A DNA stretch of 41,904 nt from IMG/VR virus record IMGVR_UViG_3300034072_000546, positions 1-41,904 of that record, one strand, 5' to 3'. A program made the translations under genes and the position numbers. The stretch is from a virus. The notes beneath the pieces were generated by a model. The model was given only the letters and a program-made list of their open reading frames with translations. It had not been told where the DNA came from and did no database searches. Of the stretch, positions 29,597 through 39,342 are shown piece after piece (positions within the stretch are counted from its first letter, which is position 1; the number at the start of each line of letters is the position of its first letter).

Positions 29597-30018
29597 TGGT
29601 GAAGCAAACCCTCTCTGCATCGGTCCGGCAGTTCGCCAACATGACCAAGATGCAGATGCGGGACGTGTTTGCCGAGTCCGTGCAGGATGTTGTCGACGCG
29701 GCGCAGTTGCCAAGAGCGAAGGGCGGGCGCATCCCGGTTGATACAGGATACCTGCGCAGCAGTCTCGCCAGCGGGTTGAATGGCACCATTGGCGCGCCAG
29801 ATGCCACGTCCTACGTCGTCACGCTCAGTCAGATGGAACTAGGCGATATCGCGCAGTTCGCGTGGACGGCTCCGTATGCCCGTAGGATCGAGCTTGGGTT
29901 CTCGGGAACCGATAGCCTAGGCAGAACCTACGAACAGGCTGGCTCGCACTTCCTGGGCTCAGCAGTCGCACAGTGGCCGCAGTTCGTGACGGCCAACGCA
30001 GCAAGGCTGAAAAGATGA
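29596..30018 (+). CDS. HK97 gp10-like tail completion protein
   Basis: 140 aa from ATG at 29596, sharing a base with the previous TAA (TAATG). Pattern: an N-terminal helix (VRQFANMTKMQMRDVFAESV), then RIPVDTGYLRSSLASGL with the family's DTGxLRxS core, a strand YVVTLSQMELG and YARRIELGF. HK97 gp10-type proteins attach the finished tail to the head. Position between head and tail-terminator genes agrees. Confidence 0.85.
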   Translation: MVKQTLSASVRQFANMTKMQMRDVFAESVQDVVDAAQLPRAKGGRIPVDTGYLRSSLASGLNGTIGAPDATSYVVTLSQMELGDIAQFAWTAPYARRIELGFSGTDSLGRTYEQAGSHFLGSAVAQWPQFVTANAARLKR

Positions 30019-30407
30019 ACCAGACGAATATCGAGTTGACCCTTGCAACTGATTTTGTTTCAGCCGCGGGGGCTTGGAAGGTTGCTATTCCGAACGTCTC
30101 TTTCGATGGGACGAAGCCTTATCTCAGGTTCGAAATAGTGCGCGTTTCCAGTCGAGACGACACCCTCGAAGGACAAGCGACAATCAACAAAGGCAGGATC
30201 GTCGCGACCGTTGTCACCGAGCAGGGAAAGAAAAGCAAAGACGGAAACATGAAGGCCGATGAGATAGCGGCTCACTACCCTATGGGGCGGCGCATCCCGA
30301 TCATCAACGGCGAGATCGTCATCATCGCGCCACCAAACATTCAAGAGGGCTTTCCTCAAGACGCGGATTGGCGAACGCCAGTCATCATCGACTACGAAGC
30401 TTCCTAA
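30015..30407 (+). CDS. Tail terminator-like protein (DUF4128 type)
   Basis: 130 aa from ATG at 30015, ATGA-coupled. Pattern AWKVAIPNVSFDGTKPYLRF followed by EIVRVSSRDDTLEGQ, GRIVATVVTE, then AAHYPMGRRIP matches the DUF4128/gpU-like tail terminators that cap the tail tube. Small alpha/beta protein; expected to form a hexamer ring. Confidence 0.8.
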   Translation: MNQTNIELTLATDFVSAAGAWKVAIPNVSFDGTKPYLRFEIVRVSSRDDTLEGQATINKGRIVATVVTEQGKKSKDGNMKADEIAAHYPMGRRIPIINGEIVIIAPPNIQEGFPQDADWRTPVIIDYEAS

Positions 30408-31336: not shown

Positions 31337-31677
31337 TCTTGGCGGCCCAGCAACTCGGCTGGCTGGCGTCCACGATCACCAACGAGAAGATGAGCCGGGG
31401 GCAAAAGTACCTCGTCTCTGGCCTTACCCCGCCGATGCCTGAATTGGAGGCTGGGGAATATCTGCTTGATGCCCTGAAGGAACTCGGCCCGATCCGCTCG
31501 AACGGTATGGGCCTTGGTACGCCGGACTGGCAGGAGCTGGTGGCCTTCGCAGCAGCAAATGACCTCGCGCTTCAGCCTTGGGAGTTCCGTCTGATCCGAA
31601 AGATGGCTTCGGCTTACTTGTCTGGGTTCAATTCAGGCAAAGAGCCGTTGAGTATTCCGCCGATGGAGCGGGAATAG
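31318..31677 (+). CDS. Tail chaperone T extension made by -1 frameshift
   Basis: Slipping back one base at G GGA AAC (31315-31321) continues as GKRERQLVLAAQQLGWLAST, then KMSRGQKYLVSGLTPPMPEL up to 31677, giving a GT-type fusion of about 262 aa. The extension has no convincing start codon and ribosome site of its own near its beginning, and it overlaps the G-like gene, exactly as in lambda gpG-T. The T part recruits tube protein to the tape-measure complex. The heptamer is of the same G GGA AAx type as in lambda. Confidence 0.82.
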   Translation, partial: KRERQLVLAAQQLGWLASTITNEKMSRGQKYLVSGLTPPMPELEAGEYLLDALKELGPIRSNGMGLGTPDWQELVAFAAANDLALQPWEFRLIRKMASAYLSGFNSGKEPLSIPPMERE

Positions 31678-31695
31678 CGCGGGAAAAAATGAAAA

Positions 31696-31719
31696 CCCGA
31701 GGGGTTACCTCGGGCTTTC
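31696..31719 (+). terminator. Terminator after the tail chaperones
   Basis: CCCGAGG (31696-31702), loop GGTTA, CCTCGGG (31708-31714), then CTTTCA. It separates the conserved tail genes from the accessory island. Confidence 0.6.
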
Positions 31720-31791
31720 ATGGGAGGAATGGTCCGGCGGTAAGATTGCTGTGCCCTCCCAAGCTAGGCGGGTTGCCGGTCCTCATCCCTC

Positions 31792-31807
31792 AAAACCCCT
31801 TTCGGGG
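31792..31807 (-). terminator. Leftward terminator of the toxin operon
   Basis: On the minus strand CCCC-GAAA-GGGG (31796-31807) followed by TTTTG, a short GNRA-looped terminator 50 bases beyond the end of the MazF-like gene. Confidence 0.5.
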
Positions 31808-31857
31808 ACAGGCTTAATATATAGATGTCAATGGCTAACTTCAAGGACTCGCAGAAA

Positions 31858-32253
31858 TCATAGGCCCAGTGCAAACGCGAGACCTTCAGCGAGTTCTTTC
31901 AAATGCTTTTCGCTCAAGAACTCAGAGGGATGGCGTCTGTTATTCCTCAATATAAGGTCGAGACGCGAATGCGAAACAGTTGTCACCATTTTGCATCTCG
32001 CCCATGAATCTTTGGTGAGGCTCCAATATGTACCCTTAGGGATGAATATATCATCCACTCCGGGAGACGCGGGAGGGACAGTCGAAAAGGGGATCACCGT
32101 TGCGGTGCCCGGCGCGAGTGCATGGCGCTGGTTATTGGAAAGGACAGAGACTACCGCAACCTGACGCGTTTTGCGCATCTCAGGGGTAATGTAGGCCAAT
32201 TCAAAGTCGCACATCAGGATGGCACCGCGCTTGGGTGCAAAGGTGATTGCCAT
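31858..32253 (-). CDS. PemK/MazF-like toxin
   Basis: 131 aa. N-terminal KRGAILMCDF is the usual MazF opening strand (RGdI....). Later VAVVSVLSNN, TATVIPFSTVPPASPG, FIPKGTYWSLTKDSWARCKM (TKDSWA like the family's 'l...SyV') and a final helix SEFLSEKHLKELAEGLAFAL. MazF proteins are ribonucleases that cut mRNA at short sequences. It follows a small XRE gene by six bases on the same strand, so the pair may form a toxin-antitoxin unit with an unusual antitoxin. Confidence 0.78.
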   Translation of the reverse strand: MAITFAPKRGAILMCDFELAYITPEMRKTRQVAVVSVLSNNQRHALAPGTATVIPFSTVPPASPGVDDIFIPKGTYWSLTKDSWARCKMVTTVSHSRLDLILRNNRRHPSEFLSEKHLKELAEGLAFALGL

Positions 32254-32259
32254 GCGGGA

Positions 32260-32544
32260 TTAGCCGTTTCCGATGAAGGTGCCGCCCTCGGGCGTAGTGG
32301 ATGGGCTGAGACGGACGCCGGGGCCGCCTGTTGTCGTTTCGCCTTCGGCAAGGAAGATAATGCCTCGTTCCTCAAGAACGCGGATTATGGATGAGATGTT
32401 TTGATAGTTTCCACTAAGCGGGCCAGTTGAACCTTCATACCTCTTGAGGGTCTGAACAGGGACATCTGCGGCCTCGGCCAACGCCCGCTGTTCGATCTTT
32501 AGGAGTGCCCGAGCTGCCCTGAGTTGGTCTGCTGTTATGGTCAT
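32260..32544 (-). CDS. XRE-family regulator, possible antitoxin
   Basis: 94 aa. HTH at the N-terminus: ITADQLRAARALLKIEQRAL, then AEAADVPVQTLKRYEG and a short linker to VLEERGIIFLAEGE and a flexible C-terminus. 'AAR.ll...Q..LA..a.v...tl.r.E...G......i..il...GI.F' is the common single-domain regulator of alphaproteobacterial mobile elements. It lies just upstream of the MazF-like gene and faces ATACCT/AGGTAT operators. Confidence 0.8.
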   Translation of the reverse strand: MTITADQLRAARALLKIEQRALAEAADVPVQTLKRYEGSTGPLSGNYQNISSIIRVLEERGIIFLAEGETTTGGPGVRLSPSTTPEGGTFIGNG

Positions 32545-32548
32545 AAAT

Positions 32549-32615
32549 GATACCTGCGTACTTTTTTCGGGTTTTAGGTATTGACTGTGAGGATTGATAT
32601 TGCTACCTAGGTATC
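32549..32615. promoter_or_regulatory. Operator cluster between divergent genes
   Basis: GATACCT (32549-32555), AGGTATT (32576-32582) and TACCTAGGTATC (32604-32615, containing the 10-bp palindrome TACCTAGGTA) share one half-site. TTGACT at 32581-32586 is a possible rightward -35. Probably the autoregulatory site of the XRE protein. Confidence 0.55.
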
Positions 32616-32641
32616 ACAGCAGATACGAAGGAGCAACCGAA

Positions 32642-32872
32642 ATGTACAGCAACACTTCTTCTCAGGTTAATACGCTCTTGGGTGAGGCGAACGCTGCCGC
32701 AACCGTCAACAAGAAGCGCGTCGAACGTCTGGCAAAACTCTTGGCTGACGCAATGAAAGACATTCACGGTGGCGATTGGCGTCTCGACATCAACCACGAT
32801 GCCGAAGCCTTCTATGCCATGGTGGCACCGAAGCGCGGCTTTTCAGCAAAGCCAACACCGGAGGCTGCGTGA
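32642..32872 (+). CDS. Small accessory protein
   Basis: 76 aa from ATG at 32642, with GAAGGAG upstream (MYSNTSSQVNTLLGEANAAA). Helical N-terminus (KKRVERLAKLLADAMKDIHG) then a strand WRLDINHDAEAFYAMVAPK. Divergent from the XRE/MazF pair and overlapping the lipoprotein gene start (GTGATGG). Function unknown. Confidence 0.6.
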   Translation: MYSNTSSQVNTLLGEANAAATVNKKRVERLAKLLADAMKDIHGGDWRLDINHDAEAFYAMVAPKRGFSAKPTPEAA

Positions 32873-33126
32873 TGGATCGTCGCACAGTTCTTAAGGGTGG
32901 CCTCGTTGTCGCCGCGTGTTCACCGGCACTTGCCATCGCCCCTGAAAACCCTCTGCCAGACGTGTCGGAGTTGCCGGTCGATAAGGTTCACCGCCTGGCA
33001 GAAGAACTCGCCCACGCGCTGGACGAATTGAATGCGGCAACGAACGTCAAGTTCTCGGCGCAGGTCGCGCCAGCATCCTCTGGGATGGGAATCTACTTCC
33101 GCAATGAGCGGTTAGGCTTCGCCTGA
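32872..33126 (+). CDS. Putative Tat-exported lipoprotein
   Basis: 84 aa from ATG at 32872. The start MDRRTVLKGGLVVAACSPAL has a twin-arginine motif (RRTVLKG), a hydrophobic stretch and a VAAC lipobox-like site, so the mature protein would start at Cys16 and be anchored in the membrane on the outer face. The mature part is short (LPVDKVHRLAEELAHALDEL, NAATNVKFSA). Phage lipoproteins of this size often block superinfection; that role is inference. Alternatively it is an ordinary Tat-secreted protein. Confidence 0.62.
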   Translation: MDRRTVLKGGLVVAACSPALAIAPENPLPDVSELPVDKVHRLAEELAHALDELNAATNVKFSAQVAPASSGMGIYFRNERLGFA

Positions 33127-33136
33127 AATCTGAAAT

Positions 33137-33246
33137 TCCCCGCTGCCATGGGGATGTAACGCGAACACAGAGCTTCATAGGCTCCGGTGTTCGTGAAAGC
33201 GAACCCCTGTGCGTTACCGGGCTTGGCAGGCCGGACGCCTATGGAG
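33137..33246 (+). promoter_or_regulatory. Structured leader upstream of the pentamer-array cassette
   Basis: Nested pairings: TCCCC/GGGGA (33137-33154); GTAACGC/GCGTTAC (33156-33162 with 33211-33217); CGAACAC/GTGTTCG (33162-33168 with 33187-33193, sharing C33162 with the previous stem); GAGC/GCTC inside. An exclusive alternative pairs CATAGGCTCC (33176-33185) with GGACGCCTATG (33233-33243, one bulge), next to the GGAG ribosome site of the 33253 gene. Two competing folds next to a ribosome site are what a translational switch looks like. No known riboswitch class recognised. Confidence 0.45.
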
Positions 33247-33252
33247 ACTGAA

Positions 33253-33918
33253 ATGGCCGTTACGAAAAAAGAGAACGTTGGTATTGAACTGCCGAAGCTG
33301 GATATCCGGCTGATGGAAGTGGCCGTGGTGGGTGACAGCCCGCTTATTGTCCACGCTTGGTCTGAGAAGGCCAAAAAGGAAATGCTCGACAAGCAGATGA
33401 AGAAGGCCAAGCCGGCCAAGGAGGCAAAAGACCCGAAGGCGGATTTTGAGGCTTCGATGTACCGGCTTGCCGATGGCGGTTATGGTTTCCCGAGCGTTGC
33501 ATTCAAGAATGCCGCGGTCACGGCCGGAACCTCCGTCGCCGGTCTGACGAAAATCCAAGCCCGTCAGGCGTTCCACATCTTGGGTGAAGACGCCGACATT
33601 CAGGGAGCGTTCGAAGGCTCCAAGTCTCGCGTCAATCTCGTTCGTATCGAGGGCGGCAAGCCATCCATGCGCGAAGACATGGTTCGGGTTGGCATGGGAA
33701 CGGCAGACCTCCGGTATCGGCCCGAGTTCTCGGAATGGCACGCAAAGCTGCTTGTCCGCTACAACGCCAATGTCCTGAGCGAAAGCCAGATATTGAACCT
33801 GCTCAACGTCGCGGGCTTTGCGGTCGGTGTCGGGGAGTGGCGGCCGGAGAAGGATGGCCAGTACGGCATGTTCCACGTCGCCACCGAAGCCGACATGTCG
33901 AAGCTGGAGGCTGCATAA
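33253..33918 (+). CDS. Conserved phage protein with RAMP/Cas7-like sequence layout
   Basis: 221 aa from ATG at 33253, six bases after GGAG (an in-frame ATG at 33241 contains that site). Order of features: an opening strand LDIRLMEVAVVGDSPLIVHA, a Lys-rich linker with KKAKPAKEAKDP, then GYGFPSVAFKNAAVTAG (compare the RAMP 'iPgsslKgalR'), VNLVRIEGG, REDMVRVG, a strand AKLLVRYNANVLSESQILNL, and a closing VGVGEWRPEKDGQYG, like the Gly-rich loop of RAMP/Cas7 folds. This family, with the same partner gene, recurs in many phages with no assigned function. The Cas7 likeness is my reading of motifs and is unproven. Confidence 0.6.
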   Translation: MAVTKKENVGIELPKLDIRLMEVAVVGDSPLIVHAWSEKAKKEMLDKQMKKAKPAKEAKDPKADFEASMYRLADGGYGFPSVAFKNAAVTAGTSVAGLTKIQARQAFHILGEDADIQGAFEGSKSRVNLVRIEGGKPSMREDMVRVGMGTADLRYRPEFSEWHAKLLVRYNANVLSESQILNLLNVAGFAVGVGEWRPEKDGQYGMFHVATEADMSKLEAA

Positions 33919-34436
33919 TGCGCATCGCTGGCTTTGAATTTGCAGAGGGTGCCCGGTTCCAGCCGGGTGCCGAGAAGAACGCCAAGCTTGTTGGCGAACA
34001 CATCGAAATGTTGCGGGCGAAGTTCAAAGGCGAACTGACTCCGCAGGATGTTCTTGACGACGCGCGCAACAACAACTCGCCGCTCCACTCCTTCTTTGAG
34101 TGGAACGACGGGGAGGCGGCGGAAGCCTATCGCCTCCAGCAGGCGAGGGGACTCATTCGCGCCGTGGTGGCCGTGTATGTCTCTGATGACCGCCCAGCGG
34201 TTCGTCAGAAGGCTTACGTCCACATCGCGGAAAAGGGCGCTCCCCACTACAGGGAAACCAGCCACGCGATGTCGCAGACCAAAACGCGAGAACTTGTTCT
34301 CAAGCGAGCATGGTCGGAGTTGCAGGCGTGGAAGACGCGGTACAAGGATCTGAAGGAGTTCGCGTCCTTCATCGATATCATCGACACGATCGACAAAGAC
34401 TTCCCGAAGTCGCTGGAGAAGGTCGGCAAGCACTAA
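33918..34436 (+). CDS. Helical partner protein of the array cassette
   Basis: 172 aa from ATG at 33918, sharing the TAATG junction with the gene above. Middle part LTPQDVLDDARNNNSPLHSF, FEWNDGEAAEAYRLQQARGL, then a strand AVVAVYVSDDRP and two long helices (TRELVLKRAWSELQAWKTRY, FASFIDIIDTIDKDF). The 'SPLH..FEW(D/N)D..AA..YR..QAR.LIR' signature belongs to a widespread phage family of unknown role. Mostly helical and of the size of Cas11-type small subunits, which is suggestive only. The pentamer array begins about 25 bases after its stop. Confidence 0.7.
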   Translation: MRIAGFEFAEGARFQPGAEKNAKLVGEHIEMLRAKFKGELTPQDVLDDARNNNSPLHSFFEWNDGEAAEAYRLQQARGLIRAVVAVYVSDDRPAVRQKAYVHIAEKGAPHYRETSHAMSQTKTRELVLKRAWSELQAWKTRYKDLKEFASFIDIIDTIDKDFPKSLEKVGKH

Positions 34437-34461
34437 GGCGGAACCGGATGCCCGTTCGGTT

Positions 34462-34695
34462 GGCAAGGATCATGGTAGGGCAGGCTAGGCGCGGCGAGGT
34501 GCGTTGTGGTGCGGTAAGGCTCGGTTTGGCAGGCTAGGTACGGCTAGGTAAGTCGGGGTCTGGTGTGGCTAGGCTGGCAAGGCGAGGTTAGGCCGGGAGA
34601 GGTTAGGCTCGGCTTGGCGGGATTGGGCAGGCTAGGCATGGCGCGGCACGGCGGGGTACGCCGAGGCGCGGCACGGCATGGTCTGGCAACGCAGG
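34462..34695 (+). repeat. Degenerate pentamer array, consensus GGYNN
   Basis: About 234 nt with five-base periodicity. By hand I count about 48 register positions: about 43 have GG, and in all but about two of those the next base is C or T; the last two bases vary freely (CTA, CGC, TGC, TAA, CAC, CAT and others). Steps of four occur about five times and one of seven. Deviant units read GT, GA, GC or CG. The G-rich strand is the coding strand of the upstream gene pair. A terminator follows ten bases later, so it is probably transcribed as an RNA tail or released RNA. It is not a CRISPR and not protein-coding; frames are open only because the repeat lacks stops. Confidence 0.85.
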
Positions 34696-34704
34696 TCAAC
34701 AAAA

Positions 34705-34734
34705 GAGGCGGCTCCGGCCGCCTCAACTGTTTTA
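34705..34734 (+). terminator. Terminator closing the pentamer array
   Basis: GAGGCGGC (34705-34712), loop TCCG, GCCGCCTC (34717-34724), then AACTGTTTTA. A strong 8-bp GC stem with a moderate T-tract. Confidence 0.72.
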
Positions 34735-37373: not shown

Positions 37374-38016
37374 TCCGATAGCACTTCCCGCGATCCCGTG
37401 GAACCAAGTTGATTTTGTCCCCGTCAGCCCTGTTTCCGCCAACCGCATGGAAGGCCGGCGCACGGAAGTTCAGGCTTTCGGAACGCCGTACTGGACTGCC
37501 AAATATTCCACCGGAACTCTGCTCCCTGTCCAGTCCGGTCTATTTGATGCGTTCATGATGAAGGCAGATGCCCGAGGCACAACGTTTCTTGGTTATGACG
37601 TTTGGCGGCCCCGTCCTATCGCGATGGACACTGGAGCGCCGCTCTCTGGCACGAAGGCGGCGGGCGGCGCTTTCAACGGTGACGTGTTCTTTCAGGCCGT
37701 GAGCGCAAACACGCTGTATCTCGGCGGCCTGCCTGCCGGCTTCACTTTCACCCCCGGCGATTATGTCGAGGTGAGATCCAGCGTTTTGAAACGATCCCTT
37801 CACCGGATAACCGAGCCCGCAGTATCGGACGCTAATGGCTTTGCGACCGTTCAGATCATGTACCCGCTCGATACCCAGAACTTCAACGCCACATGCACGG
37901 GGCATCTCGAAAAGCCAGCGTGTGTCATGTTGATCGATCCCGGCAGTGCCCAAGCTACAAAATCTCTTGGTAGTAGGGAGACGTCGTTCAGCGCGACCGA
38001 GGTATTCTTCTCATGA
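37366..38016 (+). CDS. Distal tail / minor tail protein
   Basis: 216 aa starting MPDPIALPAIPWNQVDFVPV. Beta-rich: EVQAFGTPYWTAKYSTGTLL, DAFMMKADARGTTFLGYDVW, FTPGDYVEVRSSVLKRSLHR, ending TSFSATEVFFS. Position right after the tape measure and the overall pattern fit a distal tail protein that joins tube and tip in rhizobial siphoviruses. Confidence 0.75.
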   Translation: MPDPIALPAIPWNQVDFVPVSPVSANRMEGRRTEVQAFGTPYWTAKYSTGTLLPVQSGLFDAFMMKADARGTTFLGYDVWRPRPIAMDTGAPLSGTKAAGGAFNGDVFFQAVSANTLYLGGLPAGFTFTPGDYVEVRSSVLKRSLHRITEPAVSDANGFATVQIMYPLDTQNFNATCTGHLEKPACVMLIDPGSAQATKSLGSRETSFSATEVFFS

Positions 38017-38758: not shown

Positions 38759-39342
38759 GCATTGATCCAGTCGTCGCAGCGCAGATCGAGAAGGGCCGCA
38801 TCGCTCGCCTCGACCTGATCCGCTTCGATCTCCCCGGCAAGACGGTGGGTTATCATCGCGGTGGCCGCCCTTACGTTTACAATGGGCTTACCTATCTGCC
38901 GAACCGGTTTCTGGATATCGGCAGCATGACTTCTGCGGTGGGAACGGCGGTCACGACGCGCACCATTACGTTCTCGGATATTCCGGTTACCGATCCCGAC
39001 GATGCAGTCGCGAAGATCGAGGAGTTTGACTACCAGAACTCCCCGGTCATTATCGCCCACCTTTGCGGCGTGCCGAACACGAATGAGGTTTTGGGCATCC
39101 TCGCATCTTCCATCTATGAGATCGACCAGGTGCGTTACAACAAGGGCGCTGTATCGGGCTCTGAGCGCACGCTGACGATGGAGATCGACCTACAGCCGCC
39201 GGGACGCTCGGCGCGCGGCTCTACCGGCGTCAAGCGCTCGATCGCTGAACAGCAGTTCGACAATAGCCCTACAGACACTGGCCTCGAGTATGTGGCCACC
39301 AACGCCAGCATTCCTGAGGAATGGGGCCAGAGGCAAGGCTGA
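38755..39342 (+). CDS. Minor tail protein (DUF2163-like)
   Basis: 195 aa starting MSIDPVVAAQIEKGRIARLD. Strands LIRFDLPGKTVGYHRGGRPY, then VYNGLTYLPNRFLDIGSMTS, TRTITFSDIPVTDP and a C-terminal TLTMEIDLQPPGRSARG match the 'l.r.dl..g....yh.G...y..ngl.Y.......' layout of baseplate-hub-like proteins around DUF2163 in alphaproteobacterial phages and gene transfer agents. It precedes the peptidase gene, as usual. Confidence 0.78.
   Translation: MSIDPVVAAQIEKGRIARLDLIRFDLPGKTVGYHRGGRPYVYNGLTYLPNRFLDIGSMTSAVGTAVTTRTITFSDIPVTDPDDAVAKIEEFDYQNSPVIIAHLCGVPNTNEVLGILASSIYEIDQVRYNKGAVSGSERTLTMEIDLQPPGRSARGSTGVKRSIAEQQFDNSPTDTGLEYVATNASIPEEWGQRQG

What the first reader, a model, noticed from the sequence alone, without database searches (positions are those of the whole stretch)
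33253..34734. Candidate new system: RAMP-like protein, helical partner and pentamer array as one cassette
Seen: structured leader, 221-aa and 172-aa genes joined by TAATG, array about 25 nt downstream, terminator, all on one strand inside an accessory island. Known: Cas7-type RAMP proteins form filaments on guide RNA with regular spacing, helped by small helical subunits. Inference: the first protein could polymerise along the array RNA one unit per subunit, GG being the protein contact and the variable bases facing outward, giving a nuclease-less guide complex (phage-phage competition, host gene silencing or anti-defence). No nuclease, integrase or Cas1/2 is nearby, so the effect may be by binding alone.
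Basis: inference. Interest (0 to 1): 0.92.

Follow-up and report, generated by a model that had tools for sequence, protein, structure and literature searches.

The report
Phage RNA-guided weapon against sibling phages
This phage of rhizobia-like bacteria carries a small RNA-guided system (VIPR, a recently described relative of CRISPR) whose short repeats spell out addresses in the tail genes of its closest rival phages, while its own copies of those genes differ at the sites.

Summary
33253-33918 encodes a Csm3/Cas7-like RAMP protein, 33918-34436 a partner, followed by a GGYNN array (34479-34688). The cassette is a VIPR system (preprint PMC13142463, April-June 2026). The protein family matches solved SUSP1 Vipr (PDB 36pp, E=1.3e-12), and 58 of 62 viral homologues carry a same-strand GGYNN array.

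New here: the array reads as four guides of 9, 8, 10 and 11 units, each bounded by a 4-nt unit GGCA (once GGCT). Under the published one-base-skip rule, guides B and D match exactly, and only with skip 1, a tail protein gene and the tail terminator start codon in the same sibling phages. Guide A matches the tape measure gene of a different sibling set. All hits are in codon phase, the skipped base at the wobble position. The window's own tail gene has 4 of 16 read bases changed at site B. A near-identical Vipr phage (L002) has a guide matching the window phage with one mismatch. One sibling has the site empty; another keeps an orphan guide. Guide C has no target. RNA binding, processing and silencing here are inferred.

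The parts
33174..33248 (+). Structured 5' leader of vipr; outer stem pairs TTCATAGGC with GCCTATGGA and covers the Shine-Dalgarno GGAG
   Evidence: alignment of 8 relatives, 4 pairs changed on both sides and kept; no Rfam match
33253..33918 (+). vipr: RAMP (Cas7/Csm3-fold) protein, 221 aa, phrog_4652, G-loop GVGEWRPEKDG
   Evidence: profile hit to PDB 36pp SUSP1 Vipr E=1.3e-12; AF2 model pLDDT 88, Csm-subunit matches Z up to 10.7
33918..34436 (+). vap (Vipr-accessory protein) candidate, 172 aa, phrog_15946; winged-helix-like core plus long helical hairpin (predicted)
   Evidence: adjacent homologue in most vipr loci; AF2 pLDDT 92; weak winged-helix matches only
34437..34478 (+). Array leader with hairpin AACCGGATGCCCGTTCGGTT
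   Evidence: conserved with a compensating change in L008
34479..34482 (+). 4-nt punctuation GGCA before guide A
34483..34527 (+). Guide A, 9 GGYNN units, NN = TA GC GA GC GT GC AA TC TT; matches tape measure gene of sibling phages
34528..34531 (+). 4-nt punctuation GGCA
34532..34571 (+). Guide B, 8 units, NN = TA AC TA AA GG CT GT TA; matches tail protein gene (YTYNGLVY) of sibling phages
34572..34575 (+). 4-nt punctuation GGCT
34576..34625 (+). Guide C, 10 units, NN = AA GA TA CG GA TA TC TT GG TG; no target found
34626..34629 (+). 4-nt punctuation GGCA
34630..34684 (+). Guide D, 11 units, NN = TA AT GC AC GG AC GA GC AC AT CT; 22/22 match over the start codon of the tail terminator gene of sibling phages
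34685..34688 (+). closing 4-nt punctuation GGCA
34706..34734 (+). hairpin and T-run (terminator-like), part of the phage backbone
   Evidence: also in sibling G012 that lacks the cassette
38872..38894 (+). the phage's own, non-matching allele of the guide-B site (YVYNGLT): 4 of 16 read bases differ
39286..39314 (+). site in the window phage matched 19/20 by a guide of the near-identical VIPR phage L002

Best explanation
It is a VIPR system. A structured leader controls translation of Vipr and Vap (inferred). One transcript yields four guides: runs of GGYNN units bounded by the register-shifting unit GGCA. Vipr subunits assemble along each guide, one per 5-nt unit, holding GGY and presenting NN (by homology to the SUSP1 system; not shown here). 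The complex reads dsDNA as NN-x-NN-x-NN, with x on the codon wobble base, and represses late tail genes (tape measure, tail protein, tail terminator start) of sibling phages competing for the same host, without cutting. The phage itself is spared because its own copies differ at the read positions or are non-homologous. Shown here: homology, fold, array grammar, target matches, codon phase and the own-allele differences. Inferred: RNP formation, silencing and biological benefit.
For: Vipr homology and fold. Array linked to vipr in 58 of 62 viral loci, always on the same strand, and in cultured phages ODay, Quico and Pipp. Guide D: exact over 20 scanned bases (22 on inspection) in 6 contigs, all in the tail terminator gene across its start codon. 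Guide B: 34 contigs, 10 in one tail gene family, all phase 0, with synonymous variation at all 7 skip positions; 5 of these contigs are also guide-D contigs. Guide A: 3 of 4 contigs in the tape measure gene, phase 0. In five sibling genomes, exact matches of A, B and D occur only at skip 1; skips 0, 2 and 3 never have fewer than 4 mismatches. Among 14 homologues found by protein similarity alone, guide B matches 4 exactly, at skip 1 only. Targeted phages are colinear relatives without vipr. The independent L002 guide falls in the same tail gene.
Against: No expression, binding or silencing data for this locus. Guide C has no target. Guide B has 8 units, below the 9-16 reported for vrRNAs. No tail element lies between guides, unlike SUSP1. 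The spared allele YVYNGLT is not private to the window: sibling G012 carries it too, so it may be a standing polymorphism rather than an adaptation to self-targeting. Sibling contigs hit by B and D were chosen by the match and share ancestry, so contig counts are not independent events.
Confidence: 0.92

Rival explanations
1. VIPR acts mainly as self-regulation or host gene silencing, and the sibling-phage matches are incidental conservation of tail motifs.
For: Guide B's motif YTYNGLVY is widespread in Rhizobiaceae prophages.
Against: The window's own copies of the targeted genes do not match (best own sites 4-7 mismatches); B and D independently converge on the same phages; no host target was seen in the searches made.
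Confidence: 0.04
2. The array is one long RNA with a structural or decoy role, not a set of guides.
For: It is contiguous and has no internal tails.
Against: Three of four blocks match rival genes exactly under the one-base-skip code, and the matched stretch coincides with the punctuated block.
Confidence: 0.03
3. A bona fide class 1 CRISPR derivative with contiguous guides.
For: Csm3-like fold.
Against: No repeat-spacer array; contiguous (skip 0) reading gives no match with fewer than 4 mismatches in the five siblings; the closest solved sequence is SUSP1 Vipr.
Confidence: 0.01

Closest known systems
VIPR system, type II, Escherichia phage SUSP1 (PMC13142463; PDB 36pp)
   Same: Homologous Vipr protein, adjacent small accessory gene, GGY/NN guide repeats, one-base-skip target rule, phage-on-phage targets
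   Different: SUSP1 vrRNAs are separate units of 11-16 repeats, each with its own 3' sequence; here four shorter guides are fused head to tail and separated only by GGCA/GGCT. Targets here are sibling tail genes rather than a satellite phage
VIPR types with 'staggered arrays with overlapping vrRNAs' (PMC13142463, fig. S18)
   Same: Possibly the same architecture
   Different: Cannot be decided: the supplement could not be read. Target matches here end at the punctuation and show no overlap between neighbouring guides
Csm3/Cas7 backbone subunits of type III and type VII CRISPR
   Same: RAMP fold, guide-bound backbone role (inferred)
   Different: Single small RAMP protein, no Cas10, Cas5 or Cas6 seen, non-contiguous 5-nt code, no CRISPR array

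Membership tests
VIPR | Vipr protein homologous to known Vipr | tested here: met
   A1 profile vs PDB 36pp_D E=1.3e-12, profile positions 16-189 of 192; single sequence E=1.7e-5
VIPR | RAMP/RRM core with glycine-rich loop | tested here: met
   AF2 model matches Csm subunits, VIA Z up to 10.7; GVGEWRP aligned with SUSP1 GVGDWRP
VIPR | vap gene next to vipr | tested here: met
   TAATG-coupled 172-aa gene, homologue adjacent in most loci; relation to the SUSP1 vap was not established (the genes compared proved not to be the VIPR locus)
VIPR | vrRNA of alternating GGY/NN repeats (9-16 units in the characterised clades) | tested here: met
   GGYNN blocks of 9, 8, 10 and 11 units; block B is one below the stated range
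VIPR | Targets read with a one-nucleotide skip | tested here: met
   exact matches of A, B and D at skip 1 only in siblings; unselected homologues
VIPR type II (SUSP1-like) | each vrRNA followed by its own conserved 3' tail | tested here: not met
   guides abut through 4-nt GGCA/GGCT with no tail between; SUSP1 has non-repeat stretches after each repeat tract
VIPR | Vipr-vrRNA complex binds dsDNA and represses | not testable with these tools
   needs biochemistry
CRISPR-Cas class 1 | repeat-spacer array with contiguous guides | tested here: not met
   5-nt units; contiguous reading gives no target in siblings
CRISPR-Cas class 1 | cas1/cas2 and cas10/cas5/cas6 genes | tested here: inconclusive
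   five proteins of the island scanned against PADLOC, only sub-threshold noise; the whole window was not scanned

The most novel reading that the evidence does not exclude
The 4-nt unit GGCA is a punctuation mark: it breaks the 5-nt register and so defines where one guide ends and the next begins, letting one tail-less transcript carry many guides. Phages of one group use such arrays reciprocally against each other's tail genes, with target alleles that discriminate self from sibling.
Probability: 0.6. Interest if true: 0.75.

Novelty: new member of a known kind. Interest (0 to 1): 0.62.

Why it matters
VIPR was reported only in 2026, with targets worked out mainly for two clades. This locus gives an independent test of the skip code in another phage group, with three of four guides decoded, and a natural system in which close relatives target each other's tail genes. 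Because the wobble base is skipped, one 8-unit guide matches tail genes that are only about half identical in DNA, so synonymous escape is closed off. The GGCA punctuation makes guide boundaries readable from sequence, so targets of many uncharacterised phages, including cultured Mycobacterium and Gordonia phages, can be predicted and tested.

Tried and rejected
Rfam on the window and the locus: no match. Pfam, NCBIfam and PADLOC give no usable family for either protein. Guide C: no exact 20-base hit in viral contigs, none within 3 mismatches in 26 records, none within 1 in 394 genomes of the family of Rhizobium leucaenae; its two 16-base sub-patterns gave 15 and 10 contigs with no common relevant gene, mostly out of phase. 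The orphan guide of G010 had no exact hit. 24 of the 34 guide-B contigs and L070 for guide A are regarded as chance (B: out of phase or AT-rich; L070 is in phase but in an unrelated gene). A guide-D search of 297 family genomes gave only one 2-mismatch site. I first took SUSP1 genes at 74.6-75.7 kb for its VIPR locus; tblastn showed that was wrong. Whether the unit AG before the first GGCA extends guide A was considered and dropped (fits L069 only). The type number could not be assigned: supplements of the preprint were not readable.

Full report
1. What is there. The cassette lies on the + strand: a structured leader, a 221-aa gene (33253-33918), a 172-aa gene (33918-34436) joined by TAATG, and a pentamer array. 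A chain search for GGYNN finds a single strong array in the 41.9-kb window (score 50.4) and nothing above the cut-off in 20 shuffled windows. Read in register, the array is four blocks of 9, 8, 10 and 11 units, bounded by 4-nt units at 34479 (GGCA), 34528 (GGCA), 34572 (GGCT), 34626 (GGCA) and 34685 (GGCA). The same grammar is general: among parsed arrays of the loci in hand, 388 register breaks are 4 nt long and 17 are 6 nt; 321 of the 4-nt breaks read GGCA; inner blocks peak at 9-12 units.

2. What the proteins are. A text search for pentanucleotide repeats in phages led to a preprint on VIPR systems (PMC13142463, read). It describes a phage-encoded RAMP protein (Vipr), an accessory protein (Vap) and vrRNAs of alternating GGY/NN that read dsDNA with one skipped base between dinucleotides. 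The window's 221-aa protein matches the solved SUSP1 Vipr (PDB 36pp): E=1.7e-5 as a single sequence and 1.3e-12 over nearly the full profile with 41 relatives. Its predicted structure (pLDDT 88, pTM 0.83) matches CRISPR Csm subunits and other RAMPs first (Foldseek E 2.5e-5; VIA Z up to 10.7, with isolated Csm3 crystal structures at 9.7-10.1). The 172-aa partner is predicted with confidence (pLDDT 92) but has only weak matches, many of them winged-helix DNA-binding proteins over residues 1-115, with a helical hairpin behind. [quoted passage not shown]

3. Co-occurrence. Of 62 viral loci with a relative of the protein, 58 have a GGYNN array beside it, always on the same strand; three of the four others end just after the gene. 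A homologue of the partner is detected in most. The cultured phages ODay (Gordonia), Pipp (Gordonia) and Quico (Mycobacterium) also have GGCA-punctuated arrays.

4. Targets. I tested the published rule on the window's own guides in 2.9 million viral contigs. Guide D (20 bases specified) hits six contigs, all in one gene identified as the tail terminator (phrog_179, PF13554), across its start codon; the match continues to 22 of 22 bases, ending exactly at the closing GGCA. Guide B (16 bases) hits 34 contigs. Ten are homologues of one tail gene (YTYNGLVY), all in codon phase, with different synonymous bases at the skipped positions; the other 24 look like chance and give an empirical background. 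By that background about 0.1 hit would be expected for a 20-base pattern and about 1.5 for an 18-base one (my estimate, ignoring base composition). Five of the guide-B contigs are the same phages as guide D's. Guide A (18 bases) hits four contigs, three in the tape measure gene, again in phase, with two versions that differ at five skip positions. In five fully read sibling genomes the best match of A, B or D is 0 mismatches at skip 1 where targeted, and never under 4 at skips 0, 2 or 3. As a check free of selection by guide, 14 homologues of the tail gene were fetched by protein similarity only: guide B matches 4 exactly and 3 with one mismatch; no other skip gives a match with fewer than two mismatches for any guide.

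5. Who is targeted. The targeted phages are colinear relatives of the window phage, sharing stretches of up to 5.9 kb at roughly 82-92% identity, and the five read in full lack vipr and vap. Targeting is complementary: B and D hit G008-G011; A hits G012, which carries the other allele at the B site. G012 has the cassette's site empty: window 31673 continues at 34702, with the terminator hairpin and following sequence shared. G010, itself targeted by B and D, has at that site one orphan GGYNN guide of about nine units and the same downstream sequence but no vipr.

6. Self-sparing. The window's own copy of the B-target gene is 95-98% identical in protein to the closest targeted ones, but the site reads YVYNGLT instead of YTYNGLV, changing 4 of 16 read bases. 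Against its near relative L083, 2 of only 6 amino-acid differences fall in the 8-codon site (P about 0.02; one comparison chosen afterwards, so weak). The allele is shared with G012, so it may be standing variation. The own tape measure differs at the A site, and the own tail terminator (29973-30407, PF13554) shows no detectable similarity to the D-target protein in a tblastn.

7. The other direction. L002, a phage whose Vipr is 99% identical but whose guides differ, has a 10-unit guide that matches the 3' end of the same tail gene in the window phage (39286-39314) and many siblings, 18-19 of 20 bases, in codon phase. This guide played no part in choosing the sequences, so it independently supports both the code and reciprocal targeting within the group.

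8. Mechanism. By homology and published biochemistry (preprint), Vipr should assemble along each guide and silence transcription without cutting. Aiming at late tail genes would stop a sibling from making infectious particles while sparing the resident phage. What GGCA does is inferred: since matches end at it and the register shifts by one base there, it most likely separates guides, either by capping the filament or as a processing site. The leader's conserved stem over the ribosome-binding site suggests control of translation; its ligand is unknown.

9. Limits. Nothing here shows transcription, binding or silencing for this phage. Guide C is undecoded. The preprint is not peer-reviewed, and its supplement, which shows array types, could not be read, so whether the GGCA architecture is already described there is open. 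Host: the only phage record with a related tail gene is a Sinorhizobium phage, the nearest named genome is Rhizobium leucaenae, and 13 of 297 genomes of that family carry the tail gene, so a Rhizobiaceae host is likely but inferred.

Noticed in passing
window 33174-33248: Conserved structured leader sequestering the vipr ribosome-binding site, with compensatory changes among relatives and no Rfam family; possibly an autoregulatory element.
   Followed up: partly
L133 (record G010 positions 37622-37666): Sibling phage without vipr keeps a single orphan GGYNN guide at the cassette's site; no exact target found for it.
   Followed up: partly
L002:3660-4545: In the near-identical VIPR locus an extra small gene lies between vipr and vap, and vap matches in two reading frames, so it may be frameshifted.
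   Followed up: no
L172:2611-2880 (Gordonia phage Pipp gene 43): An annotated protein-coding gene lies on top of the GGYNN array; probably not a real gene.
   Followed up: no
L170 (Gordonia phage ODay): Its VIPR cassette also lies between tail assembly chaperone and tape measure genes, as in the window, suggesting a recurrent insertion place in tail modules.
   Followed up: no
window 31675-33250: The accessory island upstream of vipr holds small genes without clear family matches that are absent from sibling G012.
   Followed up: no
L061: A vipr-vap locus in which no GGYNN array was detected; it may use a diverged repeat consensus.
   Followed up: no
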